A stretch of 64,000 nucleotides of DNA. Origin: Babesia bovis T2Bo (lineage: Eukaryota > Apicomplexa > Aconoidasida > Piroplasmida > Babesiidae). How positions within the stretch are numbered: position 1 is the stretch's first letter; each line of letters begins with the position of its first letter. Positions 42,937 through 64,000 of the stretch are shown here, in pieces. A program made the position numbers and the translations under genes. Below the pieces are notes generated by a model, which had not been told where the DNA came from, made no database searches, and saw nothing but the letters and a program-made list of their open reading frames with translations. The stretch covers positions 915,001 through 979,000 of the forward strand of contig NC_010575.1 in assembly GCF_000165395.2 (NCBI RefSeq). The letters are read 5' to 3'.

Positions 42937-44011
42937 TTAATTAGTATATACAGTGTAATCTACGAATCAGAGCAATATCTTTGTTTTGCGTTTCCGATAT
43001 AATGTTAATTTCTTGTCATAAGGACAAGATACACAAATGAGTAATAATGTTAATCCAACGTATATTCAGTCGATTATCAATACAGCAATCACAGAGATCC
43101 TATACACCAATTCGTAAATTGAAGTAAATGTCGAATACAACAACTTATATAGAACAATATGAATTGCTTACATCAACGCAATTCATGAATATATCGACCG
43201 GAATTAATCACAAGAGACAACGTTTCAATGTGTCAACCGTAGATCCAGAATATTAGATGTTGAAGGAACATAAAAATCGCTAAAAATCATTATACAGCGC
43301 TTTCATTGCCGTGGTAAATGATTATCTTAAGTAAATCTCCGCCACGCGATATACGCTGAACGCATTAACCAGCCTTGAAAATCCCGCAACAATATCCAAA
43401 AACCCACCGTATATTATATGACACATATGTGCATATAAATTCAAAGATGATGAGAATTGGTAATGCTCTACTTTGAGCAAGAGAATCACACCTTAACAAT
43501 CCAACCCCCACGTTTGCATGATTCGCGAATCATAACGTTATTTCATAAAACTATTGGCGTTCTCGATATTGTTAGCTTGATTGATTATCATGTATTGTAT
43601 GTGTAGTTTGATGAATGCTTGCATCGGTTGAACTTCAGGTGTCTTTGATAACGTTTTGTTAGTTTAAAACGTACTTCTGTGTGTCCACCATTATACTGGC
43701 AAATAAATGCATATTGTAGGCTTAGTATTACATCGAATAGATACTATATGTTCAGAAACGATTGGAAAGCATTTCTGTTGCATTCCCTTTGGGTAACTCG
43801 GATCATCATTGATGTCCAAATCTATTCGTGGTTTAATTATAATAGATTCTTCCTGAACGCCATGCCAATATGATCGTAGTGTGATATTTTAGAATGATGA
43901 ATAGACTATTTGCAACCATGATCTATATTTGTTATGTGAGAATCAACGTGTGCCTTCTGCAGTAGCGCCATATATGTTCGGAATCACGATTACTATAAAG
44001 TTCTACGTGTA
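42937..44011. other. AT-rich intergenic, no gene seen
   Basis: About 1.07 kb between the Rab6 start and the NCS6 stop, both on the minus strand. Only short frames (such as 43679-43873) occur. Presumably the Rab6 promoter and the NCS6 3' UTR. Confidence 0.5.
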
Positions 44012-45235
44012 TTAGCTGCTGTGAGCAACTTTAATATGTTCATTTGCATTAGATCGGAGCGCCGTAAGCTTCTCGACTAAAATGCAAGCTTTGCACAAAT
44101 CATTGATGCCCTCTATGCCACATTTTTTGCAAACGTTCACTTTTCGATTGGAAAGGTAACTCGCGTAAAACTGCTCCGAAGAATAAGTAATGTTTTGAAT
44201 TATTCGAGGATCTACAGCTTCTAACTGCTTGATGAACGTTCTCATGTATCCCCTGTATGCCTCCGGAGCATAAATGCATTCCGTAGAGAAATACTCTAAA
44301 TTGAGATATCGTGCATACATAACGATTTCCTTCTCGTAACAATGCATCAATGGCTTTATGCGAAGTAGCTCATGACCTTTATCCGATAGATGTAGCTTTT
44401 GAGACATTTCGGCCGTTATTTGAGTATCACACTCATCCATTTTTGTATCGTATAATAGTGGCATGAAGCGAGTAGATTTAGTTTGATCAGTAACCAAAAC
44501 GTCTGATTTAGCTTCCTTGTAAATCATGGAATGATATGAGTCTCCAACGGGTGTTGCTTCATTATTAATATGCATACCTGATGTCGTAGATGCAGTAACC
44601 TCACGTAAGTCGGCAGTAGATTTGTCACCCATTTTGGCAGTACTACCCACTGAATCCAGACTGTTTAGGTTCCTTGCCAATTTGAACAAATCGTTTCTGC
44701 ATATGTTGAGAAGAACGGTTTCAGCATTATCGTCTATATTGTGTCCAGTGCACAGCTTGTTGGCGCCAAGCATCCTCGCGCCAATCTCCAATATTTGACG
44801 TCGAAAAGTACCACAGACAGTACAGTTGTTTTTCTGCCCAATTAACGATACTACTTCATCCATATCAAATCCAAATCTTTCTTTAAAATTTAGTATTTTC
44901 AACCCATCATAATTAGGGTTACTCATACCCATGACTACGCCCAAAGAATCATCTCTGTAGCCTTTGATGCCTTCATCGGCAGCCAATAGATAAAGAGTCC
45001 ATTTGCGATGGTATCTTTCTTTTAGGGTAGCCAGCACATGGGCAAGAACTGAGGAATCTTTGCCACCGGATACCCCAATACAAACAACATCTCCGTCAAC
45101 TATAAGTTTATGTTCCTCAATCAAGTCGTACACCTCCTTTTCAAACTCATTGATGAAACATTGTCTACAATACGGAAGTCTGCTTGCACATCGCCTTAGT
45201 GTTGGTGGCCTCTCATTGCAACGTGCACATTTCAT
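44012..45235 (-). CDS. NCS6: NCS6/CTU1 cytoplasmic tRNA 2-thiolation protein (complete copy)
   Basis: Single exon, 407 residues. An N-terminal zinc-ribbon reads CARCNERPPTLRRCASRLPY..C. The PP-loop ATP pyrophosphatase motif SGGKDS is at residues 56-61. CTVC at 138-141 and GHNIDDNAETVL follow. A C-terminal zinc site (CKKCGIEGINDLCKAC, ~residues 370-390) closes the protein. With NCS2 it activates U34 of tRNA Lys/Glu/Gln for thiolation using sulfur from Urm1. The tandem 5.13-kb repeat begins inside this gene at 44551: bases 44551-45235 (codons 1-228) are repeated twice more downstream, while 44012-44550 (the rest) is unique. There is an insert-like hydrophilic region around residues 190-250. Confidence 0.93.
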   Translation of the reverse strand: MKCARCNERPPTLRRCASRLPYCRQCFINEFEKEVYDLIEEHKLIVDGDVVCIGVSGGKDSSVLAHVLATLKERYHRKWTLYLLAADEGIKGYRDDSLGVVMGMSNPNYDGLKILNFKERFGFDMDEVVSLIGQKNNCTVCGTFRRQILEIGARMLGANKLCTGHNIDDNAETVLLNICRNDLFKLARNLNSLDSVGSTAKMGDKSTADLREVTASTTSGMHINNEATPVGDSYHSMIYKEAKSDVLVTDQTKSTRFMPLLYDTKMDECDTQITAEMSQKLHLSDKGHELLRIKPLMHCYEKEIVMYARYLNLEYFSTECIYAPEAYRGYMRTFIKQLEAVDPRIIQNITYSSEQFYASYLSNRKVNVCKKCGIEGINDLCKACILVEKLTALRSNANEHIKVAHSS

Positions 45236-47114
45236 TCTTCATGACAGTTGTTTCACGATAAAGGAAATATGTGTTCATTTTGCCATGAGCGAGCAATTTA
45301 CATGTATTTATGGTCAATACTTTCGTCATGAATCATGCAATAGATGACCATTTCATTGTTTGTTCCTACACATCACAGGTGATATGAAAAATGTGTCAGC
45401 TCTGATATGTTAAGTTATGATCACCAAGTGTTTTATTAAGCCATTCTCGATCTGGGTAGCATCACTTATGATTAACTGCATTAAAATAATGTTGTATAAT
45501 TAAATTGGGAACACCTTATATTAGGACCTTTCAAATATCGTGTGTCATATGTAATAATGGCAAATCAGTTTTGTAGTTAATCACTTTTGAAAGATTCCGG
45601 TTTAAGCACAATGGTCACTGCCCTTTCATATTTACTCTTTACAATGGTATAAAAATCTAACGATATATAATTTTTATTCTGTAGTTATGTCTGCCGTTGG
45701 AATTTATATGATATGTAACATAATAAAATACAATTGTTCTTGTATATATATCGTTTGCATTGTTTTTAAACAGTAAAAGTGCATTTCATTTTCGTATCTC
45801 ATGTATTTGCTGCCTAGTTCCAATATTCCGTATTACGCCACTGTGAATAATCTGGGTATGCAGTAGAACTGGCTTTAATGTATTCCGATTATTTGTTGTT
45901 AATAGAGCTGTTTTAATTGCTATCCACTACGGTCTTATTATTGCTATGAATGGTATTGTATGATGCCTAACCAAAAATCATATTCTCTCCAGGCTTATAT
46001 TTGTTATATATGTTATCGCTCGCAATAGGGCATTACCAGTGGTGATTAAACGAAGCTTTCTTATGTTGCTTCTATTGAAAACCTGATTCAACTTTTAGGT
46101 ACATGGAAGCAATTGGCGTTTTATTTTTTTGCGCTGCGGAATCCATGATTCCCCACTCTCAATAATAACTTCCCGATTGTATAATCAAATGCATGTTTCA
46201 CAAAATAAATCTGTCTATTGAGTCTATCACATTGATAACTCTGTTATTGGATGGTGTGGGATTGTATCGTATTAGAATTTTCCTGAATATGTTTGTTACA
46301 TAAAGGTTTCGTACTTTCCACCATTTTATTTTGGTTTATCCCACAAAGTAGATATCTTTAATCGTACGTATATTGATACCAAACACCCACTACACTAGTG
46401 CTTTCAATATCTATTCTCACTGATTTACCGTATTTTTTCATGCATCATCATGTTACCATAGGCACATAAAAGTGCCCCAAGTTAATATGACATAGCATAT
46501 AAATGATTCCGACACAATTAAAAATAATAGAAGTTATTTAAAATAGATATCGAACCATTGCATTTAAATGGTGTAATCATTACGGCAAGAGCTTCACTGT
46601 TCCCACAATTTGATGAGTTTAAAATAACAGATATTTATACAGTATACTTACTGTGTACATATACACGTGAGTACTGACCAGACTAAAGGTTTTCAGCAAA
46701 AAGGAAGCACAATCCACCTTGTAATACCTATGCGTTATCAACTAGCATTGAAATCTGCCGTTTATCAGTTACATATTCATTACGTATGGTGTTGTATATT
46801 TAGCATTTAGCTATATATCATACAAAATCAATTTTTCTTTTGGTTAAAAAATTAATTGATGGTCATGTTATGGAAGGTTGATTAAGGCAACCTAACAGTT
46901 AAATCGTGTCTATTTCATGTAGACGTAGACACCAACATGGCTGAACATTGAGTCCTTTTCATCCAATTTAGTGATGCTTTTGAAGAGAAATAAAGCGTGT
47001 TGTTTATTGAAGGGCTCGACAATTGCATGGGATAATCATTAGATGCACTACGTCCTGCTACACCTGTGCTGATCAATCTTCTTACAAAGAAAGCATGCTA
47101 AATTTATTTTAATT
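45236..47114. other. AT-rich spacer upstream of NCS6 in each repeat unit
   Basis: About 1.88 kb with no convincing gene, between the NCS6 start and the end of the secreted gene; repeated almost base for base at 50368-52246 and 55497-57375. It must hold the NCS6 promoter and the secreted gene's 3' UTR. The small plus-strand frame 45003-45347 is a shadow of NCS6. Confidence 0.5.
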
Positions 47115-48389
47115 TTAACCGGGTGCTTCTACATTGATGTTATGTAACATAGTAATGAATGGTTCTATACCCGGTAAATTAATATCATAATATATTACGC
47201 CCCCTGCAGTAATTTCTTTCATATAAACCTTTTGGATATCCACATATGTGTAAGACGTTGTCGTCTTTTTGATATTAAGTAAGATGAATATGTTATGGTC
47301 GACTCTATTTTCGAATACTTCAACATGCGTAATTACTTCGCCTGAAACGCATTCATATATTGCAACATCATTTTGAAGATCCACTACATTTATTTTTTTA
47401 TAGATTGAAAACGCTTCATTTGCTAAACAATATTGGCTGTACCACCAATTTCCCCTCTTTAGATTCGCCACTATGATCATGAGCCGAGAGTTGACTTCAA
47501 AGCTGCCCACATCAATGTTTATTGTGTAGCCTCCACTGTAAGTATGAAAATCCATGATTCTAACAGCGCTTTCTGCGTATGGCATAATTCCTTTTGGTTT
47601 GAATAAATCACCTTCAATACTTGGAATAGTAATGAAGTGCTCGCGTTCAGTTTTACCGCTTATAATCGTAATGCTGATTTCGGGACTTCCAGGCACCCAT
47701 TTGATTGCGTCAGCAAGTGAATAAATGGATGCAAGTTTCGTTTCATATTCATCAGATGATGGTTCTATACCTACAAAAGGCGATATATACAACGTATCAT
47801 GAACACGTCTTAAATGATGCAGAATATCGGAAGATAATTTCTTGCGTGTTTGTGGCAGTATATACCATTTTCTAACTGTAGGTTGGCTGTTATCAAAATA
47901 TGTCAATATAAGAGGATGTATGTTTTCATCGTTGGCATCTAGATATAAAAATACAGGACCCACAACTTCTTGTTTTGTTTTTCTGCTGGTATTATATGGA
48001 CTCATAGTATTTAAATCCTTGTATGAAGATCTGTAGCCCATGGTATGACATTTCAGCAGTTTTGTTATTACAATTATATTAACATTATCATTTATATAGT
48101 GTTGTACAAAAACAGCGGCCAGTTTTTTCCCTATAAACGGCACTATTTTCACTGTCCTACCCTTATAAAGGATTGTATCGATATATTCTATCTTGCTACT
48201 GAAATTTCTATAACGTCCTTTATCCATAAATGATCCATGATGAACGGTAATGTAATCTGGTTGGTGCAAGTCATCCAATTCTAAAATTACATTATACACT
48301 ACATCCATATAGACAACTAACTGTATTCCACATATTGGAATGAAACATTTGCACCAAAATCTCACCATTGGATGCTTATTGACATACAA
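47115..48389 (-). CDS. Repeat-encoded, probably secreted variable protein, copy 1
   Basis: Single exon, 424 residues. Residues ~8-32 are hydrophobic (FWCKCFIPICGIQLVVYMDVV), a likely signal sequence or anchor. The rest is beta-rich with recurring strand openings (VILELDD near 34, VFLYLDAN near 146, ISITIIS near 237), a spacing like the FAINT/DUF529-type repeats of the 880-residue protein at 12497; a family link is suggested but unproven. It has no other membrane segment. Compared with copies 2 and 3, residues 1-38 and 288-424 are invariant apart from one codon, whereas blocks near 79-93, 102-119, 130-135, 177-197, 243-249 and 271-287 differ strongly. Function unknown; a surface or exported antigen is the natural guess. 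Confidence 0.7.
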   Translation of the reverse strand: MYVNKHPMVRFWCKCFIPICGIQLVVYMDVVYNVILELDDLHQPDYITVHHGSFMDKGRYRNFSSKIEYIDTILYKGRTVKIVPFIGKKLAAVFVQHYINDNVNIIVITKLLKCHTMGYRSSYKDLNTMSPYNTSRKTKQEVVGPVFLYLDANDENIHPLILTYFDNSQPTVRKWYILPQTRKKLSSDILHHLRRVHDTLYISPFVGIEPSSDEYETKLASIYSLADAIKWVPGSPEISITIISGKTEREHFITIPSIEGDLFKPKGIMPYAESAVRIMDFHTYSGGYTINIDVGSFEVNSRLMIIVANLKRGNWWYSQYCLANEAFSIYKKINVVDLQNDVAIYECVSGEVITHVEVFENRVDHNIFILLNIKKTTTSYTYVDIQKVYMKEITAGGVIYYDINLPGIEPFITMLHNINVEAPG

Positions 48390-49605
48390 AAAATCTATAA
48401 AATAATTTGTTAGAGTAATATAATGAAGTGTGATAAAATTTAGACATTCAATTGTTGGTGGCTAGGTGCGAAAACATTAGCTATATCAAACTGTCATAAT
48501 TTTTGTTTCAGTGTGGAAATACATTGCGAGTAATACGAATTTGTTATTGTGTTATATCAGCTCCATGCATTAGAATGAATGGTTGTTTTATGTAGATATG
48601 CCTGAACAAGCGATGAAATATTGATATTGTATACGGCGTGACAATATGATTTCACGATGGTGACCATCAAAGGGCGATTTCAAAGAGAATTTTAAACATT
48701 TTTTTGTCCGTTATCGGCCAACAACGTATTTAATATGTTAGCTGCTTGACCACGGGACAAGGAGATTTTCCATACAGATTTCATGACTTTTTGAAATGCA
48801 TAAGATAAATATAAAACTACATCCTTGTACTAATGTCATGAATTTATTAAAAACAGCCTCTTATACAAAATATACACGCCAACTCCTTTACCACATTGCT
48901 CCATATAATGAGTGTACTACACCGTTAATCAAAGTGCCCATCGGAGTGCTATGGAAGTCATCAGAAAACTTGCCAATATTGGACATGAGCTGTTTTAAGG
49001 AGATACATATAGCGAATTAATCTGGTACACGGATCAAAGTCAAATTAGTATTGTTGCGTTATTATGGACGAAGAACAGCCTTTAAATTCGAATCATGGAA
49101 CCATTATCGTATGAAAAATGTATATACTGACATAATGTACAATATTCAAAATCCCCAATATTTTGAAAATGAAATGTAAAACTATTCTAGTGTAAATCAT
49201 TTTCGGCAAACGCTGATGGCCATGAATCCAAAATGTTTATTTGATGTAGTAAGTTAATACATGACATATGTAACCAAGATAATTATCAAATACCATATAT
49301 CATTAAAATATACATTATTTAACTGGGACTCTGGAAGCTGATATATGACACCTCGAACACAAAAGCTAAACCTATATTCAACAGATAAAATAAAGAAATT
49401 CAGGATCTCACGGGGCAGCAGCCTTAAATAGCATGGCTGATACATGAATAATAGCACCGTGCACACCTCCTATGTGTTTCCATTTTAATGTAAAAGGAAA
49501 ATAAATTACATCAGATGAAGGGACTCCATTTATTTTCAGTCAAAATATAATATAGCACAATGCAATCACAACGTGAGCAAGATATGTGTCGAACTTAACA
49601 GATTT
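48390..49605. other. AT-rich spacer upstream of the variable gene in each unit
   Basis: About 1.2 kb repeated apparently without change at 53519-54734 and 58648-59862. It includes identical short frames on both strands (48796-49020 plus, 49254-49466 minus) that have little protein character. It presumably contains the variable gene's promoter. Confidence 0.5.
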
Positions 49606-50367
49606 TTATTCCAGACTTGTCTCCCCACTGAGATAGCCTCGCGATACGAGCAAATAAGCCAACATAATAACATTACGAATATGTGTTGCTTCATTATTAA
49701 TATGCATACCTGATGTCGTAGATGCAGTAACCTCACGTAAGTCGGCAGTAGATTTGTCACCCATTTTGGCAGTACTACCCACTGAATCCAGACTGTTTAG
49801 GTTCCTTGCCAATTTGAACAAATCGTTTCTGCATATGTTGAGAAGAACGGTTTCAGCATTATCGTCTATATTGTGTCCAGTGCACAGCTTGTTGGCGCCA
49901 AGCATCCTCGCGCCAATCTCCAATATTTGACGTCGAAAAGTACCACAGACAGTACAGTTGTTTTTCTGCCCAATTAACGATACTACTTCATCCATATCAA
50001 ATCCAAATCTTTCTTTAAAATTTAGTATTTTCAACCCATCATAATTAGGGTTACTCATACCCATGACTACGCCCAAAGAATCATCTCTGTAGCCTTTGAT
50101 GCCTTCATCGGCAGCCAATAGATAAAGAGTCCATTTGCGATGGTATCTTTCTTTTAGGGTAGCCAGCACATGGGCAAGAACTGAGGAATCTTTGCCACCG
50201 GATACCCCAATACAAACAACATCTCCGTCAACTATAAGTTTATGTTCCTCAATCAAGTCGTACACCTCCTTTTCAAACTCATTGATGAAACATTGTCTAC
50301 AATACGGAAGTCTGCTTGCACATCGCCTTAGTGTTGGTGGCCTCTCATTGCAACGTGCACATTTCAT
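49606..50367 (-). CDS. Truncated NCS6-like chimera, repeat copy 2
   Basis: 253-residue frame. Residues 1-228 match the complete NCS6 at 44012-45235 exactly as far as I can see, including the N-terminal zinc ribbon, SGGKDS and CTVC. After Thr228 the frame crosses the repeat junction (49683/49682) into spacer sequence and adds 25 new residues (HIRNVIMLAYLLVSRGYLSG then ETSLE) before a stop. The C-terminal ~180 residues with the second zinc site are missing. The gene keeps the same upstream sequence as the full copy, so it is probably transcribed. It is either a dead by-product of the duplication or a source of a truncated PP-loop protein. Confidence 0.8.
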   Translation of the reverse strand: MKCARCNERPPTLRRCASRLPYCRQCFINEFEKEVYDLIEEHKLIVDGDVVCIGVSGGKDSSVLAHVLATLKERYHRKWTLYLLAADEGIKGYRDDSLGVVMGMSNPNYDGLKILNFKERFGFDMDEVVSLIGQKNNCTVCGTFRRQILEIGARMLGANKLCTGHNIDDNAETVLLNICRNDLFKLARNLNSLDSVGSTAKMGDKSTADLREVTASTTSGMHINNEATHIRNVIMLAYLLVSRGYLSGETSLE

Positions 50368-53300
50368 TCTTCATGACAGTTGTTTCACGATAAAGGAAAT
50401 ATGTGTTCATTTTGCCATGAGCGAGCAATTTACATGTATTTATGGTCAATACTTTCGTCATGAATCATGCAATAGATGACCATTTCATTGTTTGTTCCTA
50501 CACATCACAGGTGATATGAAAAATGTGTCAGCTCTGATATGTTAAGTTATGATCACCAAGTGTTTTATTAAGCCATTCTCGATCTGGGTAGCATCACTTA
50601 TGATTAACTGCATTAAAATAATGTTGTATAATTAAATTGGGAACACCTTATATTAGGACCTTTCAAATATCGTGTGTCATATGTAATAATGGCAAATCAG
50701 TTTTGTAGTTAATCACTTTTGAAAGATTCCGGTTTAAGCACAATGGTCACTGCCCTTTCATATTTACTCTTTACAATGGTATAAAAATCTAACGATATAT
50801 AATTTTTATTCTGTAGTTATGTCTGCCGTTGGAATTTATATGATATGTAACATAATAAAATACAATTGTTCTTGTATATATATCGTTTGCATTGTTTTTA
50901 AACAGTAAAAGTGCATTTCATTTTCGTATCTCATGTATTTGCTGCCTAGTTCCAATATTCCGTATTACGCCACTGTGAATAATCTGGGTATGCAGTAGAA
51001 CTGGCTTTAATGTATTCCGATTATTTGTTGTTAATAGAGCTGTTTTAATTGCTATCCACTACGGTCTTATTATTGCTATGAATGGTATTGTATGATGCCT
51101 AACCAAAAATCATATTCTCTCCAGGCTTATATTTGTTATATATGTTATCGCTCGCAATAGGGCATTACCAGTGGTGATTAAACGAAGCTTTCTTATGTTG
51201 CTTCTATTGAAAACCTGATTCAACTTTTAGGTACATGGAAGCAATTGGCGTTTTATTTTTTTGCGCTGCGGAATCCATGATTCCCCACTCTCAATAATAA
51301 CTTCCCGATTGTATAATCAAATGCATGTTTCACAAAATAAATCTGTCTATTGAGTCTATCACATTGATAACTCTGTTATTGGATGGTGTGGGATTGTATC
51401 GTATTAGAATTTTCCTGAATATGTTTGTTACATAAAGGTTTCGTACTTTCCACCATTTTATTTTGGTTTATCCCACAAAGTAGATATCTTTAATCGTACG
51501 TATATTGATACCAAACACCCACTACACTAGTGCTTTCAATATCTATTCTCACTGATTTACCGTATTTTTTCATGCATCATCATGTTACCATAGGCACATA
51601 AAAGTGCCCCAAGTTAATATGACATAGCATATAAATGATTCCGACACAATTAAAAATAATAGAAGTTATTTAAAATAGATATCGAACCATTGCATTTAAA
51701 TGGTGTAATCATTACGGCAAGAGCTTCACTGTTCCCACAATTTGATGAGTTTAAAATAACAGATATTTATACAGTATACTTACTGTGTACATATACACGT
51801 GAGTACTGACCAGACTAAAGGTTTTCAGCAAAAAGGAAGCACAATCCACCTTGTAATACCTATGCGTTATCAACTAGCATTGAAATCTGCCGTTTATCAG
51901 TTACATATTCATTACGTATGGTGTTGTATATTTAGCATTTAGCTATATATCATACAAAATCAATTTTTCTTTTGGTTAAAAAATTAATTGATGGTCATGT
52001 TATGGAAGGTTGATTAAGGCAACCTAACAGTTAAATCGTGTCTATTTCATGTAGACGTAGACACCAACATGGCTGAACATTGAGTCCTTTTCATCCAATT
52101 TAGTGATGCTTTTGAAGAGAAATTAAGCGTGTTGTTTATTGAAGGGCTCGACAATTGCATGGGATAATCATTAGATGCACTACGTCCTGCTACACCTGTG
52201 CTGATCAATCTTCTTACAAAGAAAGCATGCTAAATTTATTTTAATTTTAACCGGGTGCTTCTACATTGATGTTATGTAACATAGTAATGAATGGTTCTAT
52301 ACCCGGTAAATTAATATCATAATATATTACGCCCCCTGCAGTAATTTCTTTCATATAAACCTTTTGGATATCCACATATGTGTAAGACGTCGTCTTTTTG
52401 ATATTAAGTAAGATGAATATGTTATGGTCGACTCTATTTTCGAATACTTCAACATGCGTAATTACTTCGCCTGAAACGCATTCATATATTGCAACATCAT
52501 TTTGAAGATCCACTACATTTATTTTTTTATAGATTGAAAACGCTTCATTTGCTAAACAATATTGGCTGTACCACCAATTTCCCCTCTTTAGGTTCGCCAC
52601 TATGATCATGAGCCGAGAGTTGACTTCAAAGCTGCCCACATCAATGTTTATTGTGTAGCCTCCACCCCAATTATGAAAACACATGATTCTCGCAGCGCAT
52701 TCTGCGAATGGCATAATTCCTTTTGGTTTGAATAAATCACCTTCAATACTTGGAATAGTAATGAAGTGCTCGCGTTTAATTGTACGACATTTTATCGTAA
52801 TGCTGATTTCGGGACTTCCAGGCACCCATTTTATTGCGTCAGCAAGTGAATAAATGGATGCATGTTTCGTTTCATACTCATCAGATGATGGTTCTATACC
52901 TACAAAAGGCGATATATACAACGTATCATGAACACGTCTTAAATGATCCAGCTTTTCGGCAAAGGTTTTTGGGAGTGTTTTTGGCTTTATATACCATTTT
53001 CTAACTGTAGGTTGGCTGTTATCAAAATGTGTCATTATAAGAGGATGTATGTTTTCATCGTTGGCATCTAGATATAAAAATACAGGACCCACAACTTCTT
53101 GCTTTGTTTTTTTGCTGATAAGGTATGGACGCATAGTATTTAAATCCTTGTATGAAGATCTGCAATTCCTGTCATTACTTGTTACCCGCCTTGTCATTAC
53201 CACTATATTAATCTTATCATTTATATAGTGTTGTACAAAAACATCGTCCGGTATTTTTCCTATAGACCCCAGTATTTTCACTATCCTACCCTTATAAAGG

Positions 53301-54811
53301 ATTGTATCGATATGTTCTATCTTGCTACTGAAATTTCTATAACGTCCTTTATCCATAAATGATCCATGATGAACGGCAATGTAATCTGGTTGGTGCAAGT
53401 CATTCAATTCTAAAATTACATTATACACTACATCCATATAGACAACTAACTGTATTCCACATATTGGAATGAAACATTTGCACCAAAATCTCACCATTGG
53501 ATGCTTATTGACATACAAAAAATCTATAAAATAATTTGTTAGAGTAATATAATGAAGTGTGATAAAATTTAGACATTCAATTGTTGGTGGCTAGGTGCGA
53601 AAACATTAGCTATATCAAACTGTCATAATTTTTGTTTCAGTGTGGAAATACATTGCGAGTAATACGAATTTGTTATTGTGTTATATCAGCTCCATGCATT
53701 AGAATGAATGGTTGTTTTATGTAGATATGCCTGAACAAGCGATGAAATATTGATATTGTATACGGCGTGACAATATGATTTCACGATGGTGACCATCAAA
53801 GGGCGATTTCAAAGAGAATTTTAAACATTTTTTTGTCCGTTATCGGCCAACAACGTATTTAATATGTTAGCTGCTTGACCACGGGACAAGGAGATTTTCC
53901 ATACAGATTTCATGACTTTTTGAAATGCATAAGATAAATATAAAACTACATCCTTGTACTAATGTCATGAATTTATTAAAAACAGCCTCTTATACAAAAT
54001 ATACACGCCAACTCCTTTACCACATTGCTCCATATAATGAGTGTACTACACCGTTAATCAAAGTGCCCATCGGAGTGCTATGGAAGTCATCAGAAAACTT
54101 GCCAATATTGGACATGAGCTGTTTTAAGGAGATACATATAGCGAATTAATCTGGTACACGGATCAAAGTCAAATTAGTATTGTTGCGTTATTATGGACGA
54201 AGAACAGCCTTTAAATTCGAATCATGGAACCATTATCGTATGAAAAATGTATATACTGACATAATGTACAATATTCAAAATCCCCAATATTTTGAAAATG
54301 AAATGTAAAACTATTCTAGTGTAAATCATTTTCGGCAAACGCTGATGGCCATGAATCCAAAATGTTTATTTGATGTAGTAAGTTAATACATGACATATGT
54401 AACCAAGATAATTATCAAATACCATATATCATTAAAATATACATTATTTAACTGGGACTCTGGAAGCTGATATATGACACCTCGAACACAAAAGCTAAAC
54501 CTATATTCAACAGATAAAATAAAGAAATTCAGGATCTCACGGGGCAGCAGCCTTAAATAGCATGGCTGATACATGAATAATAGCACCGTGCACACCTCCT
54601 ATGTGTTTCCATTTTAATGTAAAAGGAAAATAAATTACATCAGATGAAGGGACTCCATTTATTTTCAGTCAAAATATAATATAGCACAATGCAATCACAA
54701 CGTGAGCAAGATATGTGTCGAACTTAACAGATTTTTATTCCAGACTTGTCTCCCCACTGAGATAGCCTCGCGATACGAGCAAATAAGCCAACATAATAAC
54801 ATTACGAATAT
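49683..54811. repeat. Tandem 5.13-kb unit, copy 2 (5129 bp)
   Basis: Second head-to-tail copy. The left edge joins GTGTTGCT directly to the end of copy 1 (..cattacgaatat|gtgttgct). Non-coding parts look identical to copy 3; nearly all differences from the other copies fall inside the variable gene at 52247-53518. Confidence 0.95.
52247..53518 (-). CDS. Repeat-encoded, probably secreted variable protein, copy 2
   Basis: 423 residues, same organisation as copy 1. Distinctive blocks: LGSIGKIPDDVF (about 83-94), INIVVMTRRVTSNDRN (103-118), PYLISKKTKQ (131-140), KPKTLPKTFAEKLDHLRRVH (178-197), KCRTIKREH (243-251) and FAECAARIMCFHNWGGG (271-287). The flanking framework is unchanged. The hydrophobic N-terminus is identical to copy 1. 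Confidence 0.7.
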   Translation of the reverse strand: MYVNKHPMVRFWCKCFIPICGIQLVVYMDVVYNVILELNDLHQPDYIAVHHGSFMDKGRYRNFSSKIEHIDTILYKGRIVKILGSIGKIPDDVFVQHYINDKINIVVMTRRVTSNDRNCRSSYKDLNTMRPYLISKKTKQEVVGPVFLYLDANDENIHPLIMTHFDNSQPTVRKWYIKPKTLPKTFAEKLDHLRRVHDTLYISPFVGIEPSSDEYETKHASIYSLADAIKWVPGSPEISITIKCRTIKREHFITIPSIEGDLFKPKGIMPFAECAARIMCFHNWGGGYTINIDVGSFEVNSRLMIIVANLKRGNWWYSQYCLANEAFSIYKKINVVDLQNDVAIYECVSGEVITHVEVFENRVDHNIFILLNIKKTTSYTYVDIQKVYMKEITAGGVIYYDINLPGIEPFITMLHNINVEAPG

Positions 54812-55496
54812 GTGTTGCTTCATTATTAATATGCATACCTGATGTCGTAGATGCAGTAACCTCACGTAAGTCGGCAGTAGATTTGTCACCCATTTTGGCA
54901 GTACTACCCACTGAATCCAGACTGTTTAGGTTCCTTGCCAATTTGAACAAATCGTTTCTGCATATGTTGAGAAGAACGGTTTCAGCATTATCGTCTATAT
55001 TGTGTCCAGTGCACAGCTTGTTGGCGCCAAGCATCCTCGCGCCAATCTCCAATATTTGACGTCGAAAAGTACCACAGACAGTACAGTTGTTTTTCTGCCC
55101 AATTAACGATACTACTTCATCCATATCAAATCCAAATCTTTCTTTAAAATTTAGTATTTTCAACCCATCATAATTAGGGTTACTCATACCCATGACTACG
55201 CCCAAAGAATCATCTCTGTAGCCTTTGATGCCTTCATCGGCAGCCAATAGATAAAGAGTCCATTTGCGATGGTATCTTTCTTTTAGGGTAGCCAGCACAT
55301 GGGCAAGAACTGAGGAATCTTTGCCACCGGATACCCCAATACAAACAACATCTCCGTCAACTATAAGTTTATGTTCCTCAATCAAGTCGTACACCTCCTT
55401 TTCAAACTCATTGATGAAACATTGTCTACAATACGGAAGTCTGCTTGCACATCGCCTTAGTGTTGGTGGCCTCTCATTGCAACGTGCACATTTCAT
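54735..55496 (-). CDS. Truncated NCS6-like chimera, repeat copy 3
   Basis: 253-residue frame identical in translation to the chimera at 49606-50367: NCS6 residues 1-228 followed by the same 25-residue junction-derived tail. The repetition shows that the junction existed before, or was copied along with, the last amplification. Lack of any stop or frameshift fits very recent duplication or ongoing homogenisation. Confidence 0.8.
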   Translation of the reverse strand: MKCARCNERPPTLRRCASRLPYCRQCFINEFEKEVYDLIEEHKLIVDGDVVCIGVSGGKDSSVLAHVLATLKERYHRKWTLYLLAADEGIKGYRDDSLGVVMGMSNPNYDGLKILNFKERFGFDMDEVVSLIGQKNNCTVCGTFRRQILEIGARMLGANKLCTGHNIDDNAETVLLNICRNDLFKLARNLNSLDSVGSTAKMGDKSTADLREVTASTTSGMHINNEATHIRNVIMLAYLLVSRGYLSGETSLE

Positions 55497-58400
55497 TCTT
55501 CATGACAGTTGTTTCACGATAAAGGAAATATGTGTTCATTTTGCCATGAGCGAGCAATTTACATGTATTTATGGTCAATACTTTCGTCATGAATCATGCA
55601 ATAGATGACCATTTCATTGTTTGTTCCTACACATCACAGGTGATATGAAAAATGTGTCAGCTCTGATATGTTAAGTTATGATCACCAAGTGTTTTATTAA
55701 GCCATTCTCGATCTGGGTAGCATCACTTATGATTAACTGCATTAAAATAATGTTGTATAATTAAATTGGGAACACCTTATATTAGGACCTTTCAAATATC
55801 GTGTGTCATATGTAATAATGGCAAATCAGTTTTGTAGTTAATCACTTTTGAAAGATTCCGGTTTAAGCACAATGGTCACTGCCCTTTCATATTTACTCTT
55901 TACAATGGTATAAAAATCTAACGATATATAATTTTTATTCTGTAGTTATGTCTGCCGTTGGAATTTATATGATATGTAACATAATAAAATACAATTGTTC
56001 TTGTATATATATCGTTTGCATTGTTTTTAAACAGTAAAAGTGCATTTCATTTTCGTATCTCATGTATTTGCTGCCTAGTTCCAATATTCCGTATTACGCC
56101 ACTGTGAATAATCTGGGTATGCAGTAGAACTGGCTTTAATGTATTCCGATTATTTGTTGTTAATAGAGCTGTTTTAATTGCTATCCACTACGGTCTTATT
56201 ATTGCTATGAATGGTATTGTATGATGCCTAACCAAAAATCATATTCTCTCCAGGCTTATATTTGTTATATATGTTATCGCTCGCAATAGGGCATTACCAG
56301 TGGTGATTAAACGAAGCTTTCTTATGTTGCTTCTATTGAAAACCTGATTCAACTTTTAGGTACATGGAAGCAATTGGCGTTTTATTTTTTTGCGCTGCGG
56401 AATCCATGATTCCCCACTCTCAATAATAACTTCCCGATTGTATAATCAAATGCATGTTTCACAAAATAAATCTGTCTATTGAGTCTATCACATTGATAAC
56501 TCTGTTATTGGATGGTGTGGGATTGTATCGTATTAGAATTTTCCTGAATATGTTTGTTACATAAAGGTTTCGTACTTTCCACCATTTTATTTTGGTTTAT
56601 CCCACAAAGTAGATATCTTTAATCGTACGTATATTGATACCAAACACCCACTACACTAGTGCTTTCAATATCTATTCTCACTGATTTACCGTATTTTTTC
56701 ATGCATCATCATGTTACCATAGGCACATAAAAGTGCCCCAAGTTAATATGACATAGCATATAAATGATTCCGACACAATTAAAAATAATAGAAGTTATTT
56801 AAAATAGATATCGAACCATTGCATTTAAATGGTGTAATCATTACGGCAAGAGCTTCACTGTTCCCACAATTTGATGAGTTTAAAATAACAGATATTTATA
56901 CAGTATACTTACTGTGTACATATACACGTGAGTACTGACCAGACTAAAGGTTTTCAGCAAAAAGGAAGCACAATCCACCTTGTAATACCTATGCGTTATC
57001 AACTAGCATTGAAATCTGCCGTTTATCAGTTACATATTCATTACGTATGGTGTTGTATATTTAGCATTTAGCTATATATCATACAAAATCAATTTTTCTT
57101 TTGGTTAAAAAATTAATTGATGGTCATGTTATGGAAGGTTGATTAAGGCAACCTAACAGTTAAATCGTGTCTATTTCATGTAGACGTAGACACCAACATG
57201 GCTGAACATTGAGTCCTTTTCATCCAATTTAGTGATGCTTTTGAAGAGAAATTAAGCGTGTTGTTTATTGAAGGGCTCGACAATTGCATGGGATAATCAT
57301 TAGATGCACTACGTCCTGCTACACCTGTGCTGATCAATCTTCTTACAAAGAAAGCATGCTAAATTTATTTTAATTTTAACCGGGTGCTTCTACATTGATG
57401 TTATGTAACATAGTAATGAATGGTTCTATACCCGGTAAATTAATATCATAATATATTACGCCCCCTGCAGTAATTTCTTTCATATAAACCTTTTGGATAT
57501 CCACATATGTGTAAGACGTCGTCTTTTTGATATTAAGTAAGATGAATATGTTATGGTCGACTCTATTTTCGAATACTTCAACATGCGTAATTACTTCGCC
57601 TGAAACGCATTCATATATTGCAACATCATTTTGAAGATCCACTACATTTATTTTTTTATAGATTGAAAACGCTTCATTTGCTAAACAATATTGGCTGTAC
57701 CACCAATTTCCCCTCTTTAGGTTCGCCACTATGATCATGAGCCGAGAGTTGACTTCAAAGCTGCCCACATCAATGTTTATTGTGCAGCCTCCACCCCAAT
57801 TATGAAAATCCATGATTCTAACAGCGCTTTCTGCGTATGGCATAATTCCTTTTGGTTTGAATAAGTCACCTTCAATACTTGGAATAGTAATGAAGTGCTC
57901 GCGTTCAGTTTTACCGCTTATAATCGTAATGCTGATTTCGGGACTTCCAGGCACCCATTTTATTGCGTCAGCAAGTGAATAAATGGATGCATGTTTCGTT
58001 TCATATTCATCAGATGATGGTTCTATACCTACAAAAGGCGATATATACAACGTATCATGAAGATGTCTTAAATGTTCCAGCCTTTCGGCAGAGATTTTCG
58101 GGCGTGTTTTTGGCTTTATATACCATTTTCTAACTGTAGGTTGGCTGTTATCAAAATGTGTCAATATAAGAGGATGTATGTTTTCATCGTTGGCATCTAG
58201 ATATAAAAATACAGGACCCACAACTTCTTGTTTTGTTTTTCTGCTGGTATTATATGGACGCATAGTATTTAAATCCTTGTATGAAGATCTGCAACTCCTG
58301 TCATTACTTGTTACCCGCCTTGTCATTACCACTATATTAATCTTATCATTTATATAGTGTTGTACAAAAACATCGTCCGGTATTTTTCCTATAGACCACA

Positions 58401-59940
58401 GTATTTTCACTATCCTACCCTTATAAAGGATTTTATCGATATGTTCTATCTTGCTACTGAAATTTCTATAACGTCCTTTATCCATAAATGATCCATGATG
58501 AACGGTAATGCAATCTGGTTGGTGCAAGTCATCCAATTCTAAAATTACATTATACACTACATCCATATAGACAACTAACTGTATTCCACATATTGGAATG
58601 AAACATTTGCACCAAAATCTCACCATTGGATGCTTATTGACATACAAAAAATCTATAAAATAATTTGTTAGAGTAATATAATGAAGTGTGATAAAATTTA
58701 GACATTCAATTGTTGGTGGCTAGGTGCGAAAACATTAGCTATATCAAACTGTCATAATTTTTGTTTCAGTGTGGAAATACATTGCGAGTAATACGAATTT
58801 GTTATTGTGTTATATCAGCTCCATGCATTAGAATGAATGGTTGTTTTATGTAGATATGCCTGAACAAGCGATGAAATATTGATATTGTATACGGCGTGAC
58901 AATATGATTTCACGATGGTGACCATCAAAGGGCGATTTCAAAGAGAATTTTAAACATTTTTTTGTCCGTTATCGGCCAACAACGTATTTAATATGTTAGC
59001 TGCTTGACCACGGGACAAGGAGATTTTCCATACAGATTTCATGACTTTTTGAAATGCATAAGATAAATATAAAACTACATCCTTGTACTAATGTCATGAA
59101 TTTATTAAAAACAGCCTCTTATACAAAATATACACGCCAACTCCTTTACCACATTGCTCCATATAATGAGTGTACTACACCGTTAATCAAAGTGCCCATC
59201 GGAGTGCTATGGAAGTCATCAGAAAACTTGCCAATATTGGACATGAGCTGTTTTAAGGAGATACATATAGCGAATTAATCTGGTACACGGATCAAAGTCA
59301 AATTAGTATTGTTGCGTTATTATGGACGAAGAACAGCCTTTAAATTCGAATCATGGAACCATTATCGTATGAAAAATGTATATACTGACATAATGTACAA
59401 TATTCAAAATCCCCAATATTTTGAAAATGAAATGTAAAACTATTCTAGTGTAAATCATTTTCGGCAAACGCTGATGGCCATGAATCCAAAATGTTTATTT
59501 GATGTAGTAAGTTAATACATGACATATGTAACCAAGATAATTATCAAATACCATATATCATTAAAATATACATTATTTAACTGGGACTCTGGAAGCTGAT
59601 ATATGACACCTCGAACACAAAAGCTAAACCTATATTCAACAGATAAAATAAAGAAATTCAGGATCTCACGGGGCAGCAGCCTTAAATAGCATGGCTGATA
59701 CATGAATAATAGCACCGTGCACACCTCCTATGTGTTTCCATTTTAATGTAAAAGGAAAATAAATTACATCAGATGAAGGGACTCCATTTATTTTCAGTCA
59801 AAATATAATATAGCACAATGCAATCACAACGTGAGCAAGATATGTGTCGAACTTAACAGATTTTTATTCCAGACTTGTCTCCCCACTGAGATAGCCTCGC
59901 GATACGAGCAAATAAGCCAACATAATAACATTACGAATAT
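54812..59940. repeat. Tandem 5.13-kb unit, copy 3 (5129 bp)
   Basis: Third copy. It ends where a fourth GTGTTGCT (59941-59948) meets unique sequence; the next bases (gattattaac) differ from the unit start (tcattattaa) but resemble it. From here the chromosome continues with the small gene at 59982. Confidence 0.95.
57376..58647 (-). CDS. Repeat-encoded, probably secreted variable protein, copy 3
   Basis: 423 residues. A mosaic of the other two: it agrees with copy 2 at KIPDDVF, VTSNDR and NWGGG, with copy 1 at NTSRKTKQ, IISGKTEREH and YAESAVRIMDFH, and has private residues around 178-195 (KTRPKISAERLEHLRHLH) and Cys287. The agreement switches back and forth along the gene at least four times, which point mutation alone does not explain. 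N- and C-terminal framework identical to the others. Confidence 0.7.
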   Translation of the reverse strand: MYVNKHPMVRFWCKCFIPICGIQLVVYMDVVYNVILELDDLHQPDCITVHHGSFMDKGRYRNFSSKIEHIDKILYKGRIVKILWSIGKIPDDVFVQHYINDKINIVVMTRRVTSNDRSCRSSYKDLNTMRPYNTSRKTKQEVVGPVFLYLDANDENIHPLILTHFDNSQPTVRKWYIKPKTRPKISAERLEHLRHLHDTLYISPFVGIEPSSDEYETKHASIYSLADAIKWVPGSPEISITIISGKTEREHFITIPSIEGDLFKPKGIMPYAESAVRIMDFHNWGGGCTINIDVGSFEVNSRLMIIVANLKRGNWWYSQYCLANEAFSIYKKINVVDLQNDVAIYECVSGEVITHVEVFENRVDHNIFILLNIKKTTSYTYVDIQKVYMKEITAGGVIYYDINLPGIEPFITMLHNINVEAPG

Positions 59941-59981
59941 GTGTTGCTGATTATTAACATTTTCTACATCAATATATCGCG

Positions 59982-60267
59982 ATGTCAGGTGATAAATCTG
60001 GCAATAAGGCCAAACAAACTAGCCTTATACATCAGATACGCCAGAGGTTTCGCGTACCGTCTATTTGGTTGGCTCCAGCTAGGTGAGTGCCATTTACGTA
60101 TATAAATATTGTTGCACAGGGCTGATGCTCCGCAGCGCTGGCGTACGTCAGTAGGTGGCTTTGATCCTGCTACCCCTTACGCCGAGGCTCTCATTAACTA
60201 CCACAACCATGCTGTTTCATTCATGATTTTTGTGGTTGTTACCGTCATCGTAAGCATCAGGAAGTAG
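59982..60267 (+). CDS. Small tail-anchored membrane protein
   Basis: Exons 59982-60082 and 60120-60267, intron 37 nt (gtgagt..gcacag), 82 residues. The N-terminal part is basic and soluble (MSGDKSGNKAKQTSLIHQIR), followed by GGFDPATPYAEALINYHNHA and one C-terminal hydrophobic helix (FMIFVVVTVIVSI) ending in RK. The layout fits a small subunit of a mitochondrial or ER membrane complex. The start codon is only 34 bp beyond the outer repeat breakpoint, so its promoter probably lies within repeat-unit sequence. No family recognised. Confidence 0.6.
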
Positions 60268-60788
60268 AAACTTACACTACTGTTGTCAATATTATATTTT
60301 ATATTTAGGTTTCATATATGTTATATGGTGATTTCAGTGTACATATATATATATATATACGTCAATAACCTACGGAATAGGGTGTATTGTAAATATTTTC
60401 AACATTATATTATTCTGTTATGGGTGTAAATCATTTGTTATGCCTATTGAGAATGCTATAAAATCTTTGCGGTTCCACTGTAGTTAAACTTTAGCGATTA
60501 ATGGGTCATGCACGAGCGATATCATATGTGTGAATCTTACAAGCTATGTTGGAGGTATATGATGCTATTTCGTTGACCTTTTAATCATCAGTTATATTTG
60601 AATATGTGTTATGTATGGGTATATTAATATTTAACTCTGAAAATCGATCGCGTTACAATAAACTCTAGAAGACATCAATAACATTACATTGTTCATAACT
60701 TCATTTAATTTGTTTATTGTCTCACGTATTGTTGTAGACTCTGGAGTTCGTTCATCACTTAGATGAGCGTAGCTGACATAGATATGCA
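60268..60788. other. Intergenic with a short AT dinucleotide run
   Basis: About 520 bp, T-rich, between two convergent genes. A perfect (AT)8-type microsatellite lies at 60343-60359. No gene seen. Confidence 0.6.
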
Positions 60789-62732
60789 TCAGATACCCTT
60801 TTGTTTCATTTTCTTGTAGCGACGCGGTGGATCTGTTGGTAACTTCCGTTTAACCGATGGTGTATTTGTGAACGCTGCGGAAGACTGCTCCTTATAATCA
60901 ATAGTAATCACAGGCGGGCGTAATCTGATGTGGTAAATAGTCTCACCAAGACATACGAACTTATAGTTTTCCAACCAATCGTATGGTTCAGAACAGCCAG
61001 TGTTAATTGCATCCATGTTGATTTTATTCAGCGTCGCCATGCTCACGCTGGTAACTGGTTTGAGGGCGCAGCCTATCATACATGGGCATGTCATTTGCTG
61101 CGAATCAACTCCGTTTTTATATGTATAAACTTCATAATTATTAACATCCCAGAAAATGGGATTGATAGGACTTAAAATGTACGACCTAATCGAGTAAGAA
61201 GGTCGAGAAGCCTGGATTTTATCTCCCATACAGTTCGCAGTTACATAGTTTGTCAGATTAGCTATTGACCTTACTAGAACCACATCTCCATTATACACAA
61301 GATACTCTTGATCATATAAAAGCACGTTGGTGTACCACGACTCACAATGCCCGTATCTTGTTCCGAAATGTTCGTTGGGCCTTATCTCTACATCTATACC
61401 AACCAAGAAACCACACATGGGACCAGAGCTTGTTATATTAAAAGCAGATTCATAATGCTGGCACATTTGCAGTTGCATCCACTCTTCAAACTGCAAGTGC
61501 TCCAGAGTTCTCCATTGCAAGGATATAGGCAGGTTATCTATTTTTAATCCTACACTTTGCATCATTTTGTAATTTGGGCTAAAGATGGTCATCTCTTCCT
61601 GTAATAGTGCCTTATTGGTCACATTCTCAGCATCTGGGAATACACAGGGTATATACATTGTTGCAGCCGAGGTCGGTATGCTTTTCACCTTCTTAATGTA
61701 CTCAGGTTTATTAAATAGGATGCGGCGCTGTATATCCAAAAACACATCTGCCACTCCTTCCTGGGAACAGAAATCACCCAAAATCTCACTTATTATCATA
61801 TCATAAGGAGGATTGGGTGGCAATTCAATTTCTTCTGCTCTATCTTGTTTTTGTCCTATTAATCCAAAAAAAGATTCGGTATCGAAGAAAAATGTTTTGG
61901 AGTGGCAATTGAAAACTTTGATTTTATCAGATACGCCATATGCTGCCATTAGTTTTGCCGCTAATCTGGCAGAGCTTGTAGACACTTCAAGTGCATCAAC
62001 AACTTTGGCTCCCGCATTCAATGCATTCATGGCCAGAACGCACATTGGCCCGGTACCAATTTCCAAGACCTTTTTATTAGAACAGTAATGCCTAGGTTTT
62101 GATAACTTTTTTGTATAGTTGTGATTTTGTGGAGCGATGAGCGCCTGATTGCAATGTAGCTTGTTGTAACCTTCTTGAATCTGCTCTTTTACCGAATCGG
62201 GATGTTCTATATGACAACACGGTACGTCATCAGAATCCTCATGTCCTGACCAGAAAATGGCTGCACGATAGTAATGTACCCGATCAACATCGGCCACCAT
62301 GGCTTCATGGTTAGAGAGCTCAAATTGATTACATATAGAGAGTGTCGTTGGGATTCCATCACATACATCAGTTCTGCTCGCAACGTGGGTATTGAGGAAT
62401 TTGTCAATCTTATCCTTGAGAGTTAGTGATGAGCTCCAACGTGGCCGCCTGCGATCAAGAAATGGCGACTCTTCTCCTCCTCCTTTTTTGTAATTATACA
62501 GTTTACGACATACAGCGGGACCATTCCTAATCTGTGAAGAAGGTGTGTGTGTAGCAGATCTTGAAGAATCCGTTGTACTTTCACCCAAACTTCTCCGCTT
62601 TTTTTGTGAGAAAATATAATCATCCCCGAAAAAGTGATCAACATTATGACAATCCAAATTTTCAAGATCTATGATTACTTCATCACCTAGCAGATTGTCC
62701 ATTTCCATTTCAACCTGTTTAGGAATGGACAA
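60789..62732 (-). CDS. PRMT-family protein arginine methyltransferase, PRMT5-like active loop
   Basis: Single exon, 647 residues. SAM-binding motif I is VLEIGTGPMCVLAMNA (residues ~222-237), with an acidic end of strand 2 (ALEVSTSSARLA). The double-E substrate loop reads SEILGDFCSQE (315-325), with the exact spacing of PRMTs and closest in type to PRMT5 (SELLGSFADNE). A beta-barrel part follows (GPMCGFLVGIDVEIRP; ESWYTNVLLYDQEYLVYNGD). The N-terminal ~200 residues are polar and low-complexity and do not look like the PRMT5 TIM barrel. The C-terminus is a basic patch (KRKLPTDPPRRYKKMKQKG), a likely nuclear signal. It should methylate arginines of histones, splicing or other proteins; type I or II cannot be told. 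Confidence 0.8.
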   Translation of the reverse strand: MSIPKQVEMEMDNLLGDEVIIDLENLDCHNVDHFFGDDYIFSQKKRRSLGESTTDSSRSATHTPSSQIRNGPAVCRKLYNYKKGGGEESPFLDRRRPRWSSSLTLKDKIDKFLNTHVASRTDVCDGIPTTLSICNQFELSNHEAMVADVDRVHYYRAAIFWSGHEDSDDVPCCHIEHPDSVKEQIQEGYNKLHCNQALIAPQNHNYTKKLSKPRHYCSNKKVLEIGTGPMCVLAMNALNAGAKVVDALEVSTSSARLAAKLMAAYGVSDKIKVFNCHSKTFFFDTESFFGLIGQKQDRAEEIELPPNPPYDMIISEILGDFCSQEGVADVFLDIQRRILFNKPEYIKKVKSIPTSAATMYIPCVFPDAENVTNKALLQEEMTIFSPNYKMMQSVGLKIDNLPISLQWRTLEHLQFEEWMQLQMCQHYESAFNITSSGPMCGFLVGIDVEIRPNEHFGTRYGHCESWYTNVLLYDQEYLVYNGDVVLVRSIANLTNYVTANCMGDKIQASRPSYSIRSYILSPINPIFWDVNNYEVYTYKNGVDSQQMTCPCMIGCALKPVTSVSMATLNKINMDAINTGCSEPYDWLENYKFVCLGETIYHIRLRPPVITIDYKEQSSAAFTNTPSVKRKLPTDPPRRYKKMKQKGI

Positions 62733-62979: not shown

Positions 62980-64000
62980 TTAATCTCTAAAATCTTTGAA
63001 AAATTGCAAGTGGTCCATTAACCAGCATAGACACGATGCTTCTGTAGCCTTGTGGTGATTGTATAATTCTTTGCGTATGTCATTATTAGATTTCCTTTCA
63101 CTTTTGCCAACCATCTCTTTAGAGAATCTATTGCCAACATTATAAAAAGTATACGATGCTAAGGCTTCAATACATTTGAGAAATTCGGGAAACCCCTTAA
63201 CTGAGTATTGTGTGTGATTTCTAAGGAATGAATTTTTAACGGCATCCTTTACATCCTGGAATCTATGCTTAACGATCGATCTAACGCTGTTGTTTTGCTT
63301 CATTATTCCATTTTTAATTGGCGTCAATAACCCGTTATGTTTAAAGAAACGTATCAAGTCGTCACATTCTATATCGTCTTGTTGATACTTCTTTCTATAT
63401 TCTGTATACAGCGCTGTAACTTCACCTATTTCGGGTGGTATTCTAATTTTTAATTCAATCCACTTCGTCATTTCATTTGTGGATGGGTATCCGCATCGCA
63501 TTCTATGTACTAACTTCAAACACTCTTCCACCAATGTCACTTTAATGTGATAATCCACAAAATCTGTCTTCGTGGAATCATTTGTTGTGTACATATATTG
63601 TAAGCTCGGGTTTGCGTTTACCTCCAAGAGCCACATCTTGCCACATTCATCCAGTAGCATATCCAGTCCCATGATTTGGAAGCTATAGGCGTCCGTAACA
63701 TCCGCATTGATTTGTATGATGGGATATATAATTGATATGGCAGCTTCACTCAATGATGTTATTTGTTTCCATATCTTCTTTGTATCGACGCCGTGGGTAC
63801 TTTTTAGCGTTTCAAGAACAGAGTGCAATGTCCTTTTGTTGCCTACGCTGTCCCCAGCATATTTGCTTCTCCTAAATTGGCTATTATGCCTATTAATCGA
63901 ATAATTGGTTAAATGTACGTAAGGGTCGTGACAATTTTCTTTATCGGGACGTTGATATGGTTGTGTACATTTTCGTGCAATTCCCAGTGTAGACAGCAGG
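62980..64000 (-). CDS. Tubulin-tyrosine-ligase-like (TTLL) enzyme, 5' end beyond window
   Basis: Minus-strand frame open to the window edge, about 340 codons visible. Upstream of the first in-frame Met it already reads YVHLTNYSINRHNSQF, the conserved TTLL motif (HLTNYSINK.N). Then come FQIMGLDMLLDECGKMWLLE and VNANPSL, the ATP-grasp metal/ATP site with the E-x-N pair. The C-terminal ~170 residues are helical and unassigned. TTLLs add Glu, Gly or Tyr to tubulin tails; here the subpellicular or spindle microtubules are the probable substrate. The N-terminal half lies outside the window. Confidence 0.88.
   Translation of the reverse strand, partial: LLSTLGIARKCTQPYQRPDKENCHDPYVHLTNYSINRHNSQFRRSKYAGDSVGNKRTLHSVLETLKSTHGVDTKKIWKQITSLSEAAISIIYPIIQINADVTDAYSFQIMGLDMLLDECGKMWLLEVNANPSLQYMYTTNDSTKTDFVDYHIKVTLVEECLKLVHRMRCGYPSTNEMTKWIELKIRIPPEIGEVTALYTEYRKKYQQDDIECDDLIRFFKHNGLLTPIKNGIMKQNNSVRSIVKHRFQDVKDAVKNSFLRNHTQYSVKGFPEFLKCIEALASYTFYNVGNRFSKEMVGKSERKSNNDIRKELYNHHKATEASCLCWLMDHLQFFKDFRD

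What the first reader, a model, noticed from the sequence alone, without database searches (positions are those of the whole stretch)
44551..59948. Triplicated 5.1-kb locus whose secreted gene is hypervariable in blocks while its surroundings are frozen
Three head-to-tail units (5132, 5129 and 5129 bp) are almost identical in ~3.8 kb of spacer and NCS6 sequence (I noticed about one base change), but the ~424-codon gene differs at some 50 residues, nearly all replacements, clustered in about six blocks. Only about four synonymous changes were noticed. Copy 3 is a mosaic that switches between copy-1-like and copy-2-like blocks. Recent duplication with flanks homogenised, yet loops diversified and shuffled, looks like a small antigen-diversification locus built by gene conversion and positive selection.
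Basis: partly seen in the sequence, partly recalled or inferred. Interest (0 to 1): 0.87.

Follow-up and report, generated by a model that had tools for sequence, protein, structure and literature searches.

The report
Parasite gene triplet with divergence peak
In the cattle parasite Babesia bovis, three copies of a 5-kb segment are almost letter-for-letter identical except for one 813-base stretch inside a gene for a probably secreted protein, a pattern suggesting that DNA copying keeps levelling the repeats while the differing part is preserved.

Summary
Three head-to-tail units (5132/5129/5129 bp) have 88 variable columns, 87 of them in an 813-bp core (47463-48275) of one gene; the other 4,316 aligned bases hold one SNP, plus a 3-bp indel. 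The window is Babesia bovis T2Bo chromosome 3. But silent core sites vary about 170-fold more than the flanks, so recent point mutation plus amino-acid selection cannot explain it; the core has an older history than its surroundings. The protein belongs to a family of at least 34 loci, mostly ~430-aa frames, without a Pfam family in the 10 members tested. It is not SBP2t, though four members alternate with SBP2t-like genes. No donor for the blocks was found in the assembly. Best reading: exchange homogenises the array while selection preserves a shuffled core, a 'divergence peak' as in opsin genes. Caveats: one genome, no reads, no outgroup allele.

The parts
44551..49682 (.). Unit 1 of the tandem array (5132 bp)
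49683..54811 (.). Unit 2 (5129 bp)
54812..59940 (.). Unit 3 (5129 bp)
59941..59948 (.). 8-bp microhomology (GTGTTGCT) shared by the unit's left end and the sequence at its right border; probable breakpoint of the founding duplication
47115..48368 (-). Gene copy 1, 417 codons, N-terminal hydrophobic segment, no Pfam family
52247..53497 (-). Gene copy 2, 416 codons
57376..58626 (-). Gene copy 3, 416 codons
47463..48275 (-). Hypervariable core of copy 1 (codons 32-302); 87 of the array's 88 variable columns lie here
52592..53404 (-). Corresponding core of copy 2 (codons 32-302), coordinates by the 5129-bp offset
57721..58533 (-). Corresponding core of copy 3 (codons 32-302), coordinates by the 10258-bp offset
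44012..45235 (-). Full NCS6/CTU1-like PP-loop protein, 407 aa; its 5' part falls in unit 1
49606..50367 (-). Truncated NCS6 copy: 228 residues plus 25-residue junction tail
54735..55496 (-). Truncated NCS6 copy: 228 residues plus 25-residue junction tail

Best explanation
A segment carrying one member of a Babesia bovis family of probably secreted ~430-aa proteins, together with the 5' part of NCS6, was duplicated at an 8-bp microhomology and then expanded to three by unequal exchange. Exchange among the copies (gene conversion or unequal crossing-over) keeps spacers, NCS6 fragments and the gene's two ends identical. The middle of the gene keeps old differences because lineages whose cores were levelled were selected against, while short tracts are swapped between cores and make mosaics. 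The result is three neighbouring, probably co-regulated protein variants that most likely work as diversified effectors or antigens in the infected red cell. Shown: the tandem units in this assembly, intact frames, divergence peak, silent-site peak, alternating block pattern, and no donor found outside the array. Inferred: ongoing conversion, selection for diversity, secretion, host-facing role.
For: 87 of 813 core sites against 1 of 4,316 elsewhere (P 3e-70); clean silent sites 8 of ~181 in the core against 1 of 3,878 sites outside the gene (P 1e-10). The truncated NCS6 copies, presumably unconstrained, are identical to the full gene's 5' part, so the flanks are young or homogenised. Between-block parts of the core are intermediate (pS 0.017-0.025, against 0.08-0.19 in blocks and 0-0.011 in the frozen coding part), as expected if short tracts erode divergence around preserved islands. 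All three frames are intact, and variable residues avoid family-conserved positions (1 of 27 conserved core positions varies; mean entropy 3.04 against 2.39 bits, 0 of 20,000 permutations). Another array of the same family shows no comparable gene-limited peak in 6 of 6 pairs, though pair 2-3 has a mildly higher gene rate (7 of 1,314 against 5 of 2,725). Theory and the opsin precedent: PMC3924837 (passages).
Against: dN/dS is not above neutral. The variable sites were not enriched in predicted loops. No second strain or outgroup allele was available, so homogenisation, recent copying plus import, and the polarity of the mosaic cannot be separated. Copy number rests on one assembly.
Confidence: 0.5

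Rival explanations
1. Recent triplication followed by import of core blocks from allelic copies in other parasite genotypes (meiosis in the tick) or from a donor missing from the assembly; flanks are identical because the array is young.
For: Flanks almost identical. Unequal numbers of private changes, 50/29/7 over the unit (49/29/7 in the gene), suit tract imports better than a clock. Silent and replacement changes rise together in the blocks. PMC10463595 (passage) reports, as unpublished data, diversity growing in B. bovis culture, likely by segmental gene conversion.
Against: No donor found in the assembly: whole gene, one 131-bp block of copy 1, and 18 block variants in 30 paralog frames, never more than 2 matching bases better than the reversed control.
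Confidence: 0.28
2. Assembly artefact: variants of one or two copies in a mixed isolate were laid out as three tandem units.
For: No reads were available. PMC3826834 (section 10, part 1 of 2 read) suggests that the virulent T2Bo population is heterologous.
Against: Internal junctions with truncated NCS6 require at least two physical copies if the junction sequence is real. A mix of variants would be expected to vary in the flanks too, which are frozen (inference).
Confidence: 0.12
3. Recent triplication followed by point mutation and strong positive selection on the core's amino acids only.
For: Replacement changes dominate in number; blocks of pair 1-3 show a nominal excess (P 0.015).
Against: Silent core sites vary ~170-fold more than the flanks; overall dN/dS is at neutral expectation.
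Confidence: 0.03
4. Localised hypermutation of the core.
For: Dense clusters (up to 11 variable columns in 30 nt). At copy-1-private sites the other two copies seldom have T on the coding strand (3 of 49), an unexplained composition bias.
Against: Changes involve all four bases, with transitions and transversions mixed (35/46, 24/35, 21/17 per pair, flank SNP included), not one template base; frames stay intact; states are shared between two copies in blocks.
Confidence: 0.04

Closest known systems
Divergence peaks under gene conversion (human red/green opsin exon 5)
   Same: Neighbouring duplicates kept similar by conversion, with a peak of divergence in a small part while flanking introns stay similar (PMC3924837 passages).
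   Different: Here three units, several blocks, a parasite protein of unknown function, and no population data.
B. bovis ves1 segmental gene conversion
   Same: Short patches, mosaic genes, the same organism (PMC6630957 passages).
   Different: No donor library was found for this gene, and all three copies have intact frames.
B. bovis msa-2 and rap-1 tandem loci
   Same: Small tandem loci of merozoite proteins (rap-1: PMC6630957 passages; msa-2: a reference title seen).
   Different: Different proteins. Identical 3.9-kb spacers with a core-limited peak is the feature here; the spacers of those loci were not compared.
Toxoplasma ROP5 locus
   Same: Multicopy locus of a rhoptry protein tied to virulence, with strain-dependent copy number (PMC3310773 passages).
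   Different: Kinase-like protein (recalled), unrelated to this one; its spacers were not compared.

Membership tests
Divergence peak under gene conversion | Low divergence in flanks, peak in a small part, silent sites included | tested here: met
Divergence peak under gene conversion | Duplicates older than their flank divergence (orthologs in relatives or strains) | not testable with these tools
   the genome has no relatives in the whole-genome tool; protein searches found only this genome's own copies
ves-type segmental gene conversion | Donor copies elsewhere in the genome | tested here: not met
   (this assembly only; 30 paralog frames, one later-found locus not included)
SBP2t family | Sequence match to SBP2t proteins | tested here: not met
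   in the C3:1.39-Mb cluster the query matches 4 of 4 437-aa genes and 0 of 5 ORFs of 236-291 aa at E<=1e-3; that the five are SBP2t rests on locus-tag order and size, not on a published sequence; full-length SBP2 was not compared
~430-aa unnamed family of B. bovis | Full-length homology to members | tested here: met
   33 matches including the three copies, weakest E 2.2e-8; 40 with a second query, 34 of them strong and 6 partial and weak; 6 invariant columns in 24 members
~430-aa unnamed family of B. bovis | Export into the red cell | not testable with these tools
   N-terminal hydrophobic segment; no RxL or RxxL motif shared by all three copies
Any known fold | Confident structural neighbour | tested here: inconclusive

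The most novel reading that the evidence does not exclude
A self-contained three-copy cassette that generates variants of an exported Babesia protein by reshuffling blocks within the array, without any silent donor library, while concerted evolution freezes everything else; that is, a minimal mosaic generator for a host-facing protein family not yet described.
Probability: 0.2. Interest if true: 0.75.

Novelty: new member of a known kind. Interest (0 to 1): 0.5.

Why it matters
If the reading is right, the sharp peak marks, without any functional data, which 271 codons of this uncharacterised protein are preserved as different. It also points to a family of at least 34 B. bovis loci without a Pfam family in the 10 members tested, four of them alternating with genes that by tag order include the attenuation marker sbp2t11. 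If BBOV_III004490 is one of the three copies, as locus-tag order suggests, the array is transcribed in blood stages and differs between virulent and attenuated lines.

Tried and rejected
SBP2t membership: I first took the 437-aa homologs at C3:1.39 Mb for SBP2t genes (note). One search showed that the SBP2t-like ORFs are the shorter ones alternating with them, and I dropped that identity (note).

Full report
What was checked. The window is C3:915001-979000 of an 8.23-Mb, 8-contig genome. Three published primers of BBOV_III004540 (tubulin-tyrosine ligase; PMC8353865 passages) match exactly at 62993-63013, 63787-63806 and C3:978972-978991. C4 is 1,797,577 bp long, the N50 given for B. bovis in PMC10463595 (passage). 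The window ORFs at 3878-5323 and 6523-8790 look by eye like the hsp90 and Hsp70-family genes that PMC11581398 tags BBOV_III004230 and III004240 (passages). The 880-aa ORF at 12497-15139 has RVLL at 185-188, as described for VEAP, BBOV_III004280 (PMC7561165 passages). So this is B. bovis T2Bo chromosome 3.

Anatomy. Units 1-3 are 5132, 5129 and 5129 bp. The left border cuts NCS6, so only unit 1 is continued by the full 407-aa gene; units 2 and 3 keep 228 residues and the PP-loop match. GTGTTGCT occurs at both borders. Each unit carries one minus-strand ORF of 416-417 codons with an N-terminal hydrophobic stretch and no Pfam family (hydropathy computed for copy 1 only). No Rfam match lies at 44000-61000.

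Where the copies differ. Of 88 variable columns, 87 lie in 47463-48275 (codons 32-302); one SNP (46992) and a 3-bp indel (codon 369) lie elsewhere. Gene differences per pair (1-2, 1-3, 2-3) are 80, 58 and 38; outside the gene 1, 1 and 0. Splitting the gene: in six blocks (86 codons, chosen by me from the replacement clusters) pS is 0.187/0.084/0.104 and pN 0.302/0.226/0.125; between blocks (185 codons) pS is 0.025/0.025/0.017 and pN 0.014/0.012/0.011; in the frozen 145 codons there is no replacement and at most one synonymous difference, next to the indel. Silent-only codons in the core number 8, counted by hand, in about 181 synonymous sites, against 1 in 3,878 sites outside the gene (P 1e-10). 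This is the central result. Selection on amino acids cannot raise silent variation 170-fold in the middle of a frozen repeat, so the core has a deeper history than its flanks.

Selection. The neutral simulation gives 18.6, 13.2 and 9.5 expected synonymous changes against 15.2, 9.0 and 8.0 seen (P 0.20, 0.11, 0.36). Fisher tests of pN against pS over the whole gene are not significant in 3 of 3 pairs; on blocks alone 1 of 3 pairs is (P 0.015; the others 0.07 and 0.82), with the bias that blocks were drawn by replacements. Constraint is visible: 1 of 27 core positions conserved in the family varies, and varying positions have higher family entropy.

Mosaic. Copy-1-private and copy-2-private sites alternate in runs (18 seen, 37.5 expected, 0 of 100,000 shuffles). 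With three sequences this can mean a mosaic copy 3 or block changes in copies 1 and 2; the paralogs could not polarise it. Private changes are 50/29/7 over the unit (49/29/7 in the gene), far from equal.

Donors. The whole gene finds only the three copies at DNA level and a 131-bp block of copy 1 likewise. Eighteen block variants against 30 paralog frames give best matches at most 2 bases above the reversed control. Lost donors, gaps in the assembly or alleles of other strains remain possible, and the genome tool scores only its best candidates.

Family. Copy 1 finds 33 matches, itself and its two sisters included. A second query finds 40, of which 34 are strong and six are partial and weak; of the 34, at least two are broken or partial frames (C2:178784, C3:1259547). 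Members outside the triplet are 18-30% identical to it. A 24-member alignment has six invariant columns, and the model is mostly beta (pLDDT 83.1) without a confident neighbour. Four members alternate with five SBP2t-like ORFs at C3:1.387-1.408 Mb. This fits sbp2t7/9/11 being III006460/6500/6540 (PMC5848574 passages) and III006450 being an ABC transporter (PMC9806345 passages), so the alternating genes are probably III006470-6530. No listing or passage that I saw in searches names this family; these cover open-licence papers only and were not exhaustive.

Control array. In that cluster's four units the 437-aa gene differs at 3, 8 and 7 of 1,314 sites in pairs 1-2, 1-3 and 2-3, while the two flanks together differ at 43, 40 and 5 of about 2,720 sites. 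In the three pairs with unit 4 the gene differs at 62-70 sites and the flanks at 165-180. Pair 2-3 has a modestly higher gene rate. No pair of the 6 shows a gene-limited peak like the triplet's.

Expression lead. PMC3826834 (section 10, part 1 of 2 read) lists III004490, a hypothetical protein, among eight genes validated as differentially expressed between virulent and attenuated L17. Counting back from III004540 over two genes (the ORF at 60789-62708 and what I take, from recall, to be a COX2-like gene near 59980; Pfam found nothing for a 49-aa piece of it), III004490 most likely falls on copy 2, or on copy 1 if the truncated NCS6 copies carry no tags. This is an inference; supplements could not be read, and the direction of change was not seen.

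Verdict. A real and striking divergence peak in a tandem array, best explained by homogenisation around a preserved core. Import of blocks is a serious rival. The antigen label is plausible but untested.

Noticed in passing
window 12497-15139: Probable VEAP gene (BBOV_III004280, a published exported virulence-associated protein) about 29 kb from the array; the RxL position matches the publication.
   Followed up: partly
C3:1387821-1407820 (L019-L021): Five SBP2t-like ORFs alternate with four members of the triplet's family in ~4.8-kb repeats; the passages on the sbp2t clusters that I read do not mention the alternating genes.
   Followed up: partly
C3:2415847-2434174 (L022-L024): A run of ten family members about 1.9 kb apart, no two more than 40% identical.
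   Followed up: no
C1:209623-210792 (L033): A family member with a 673-aa reading frame, about 240 aa longer than most others, with no Pfam match.
   Followed up: no
C2:178612-179785: A broken family member (one in-frame stop, two pieces) on chromosome 2.
   Followed up: no
C5:501337-523662: Four ~780-850-aa frames of which about 150 residues weakly match the family's N-terminal part (E 1e-6 to 0.03), perhaps a distant sister family.
   Followed up: no
window 49606-50367 and 54735-55496: Two truncated NCS6 copies keep the PP-loop match above Pfam's cut-off but lack the C-terminal zinc-ribbon part of the full gene.
   Followed up: partly
window 47463-48275: At copy-1-private sites of the core the other two copies have T on the coding strand in only 3 of 49 cases; unexplained.
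   Followed up: no
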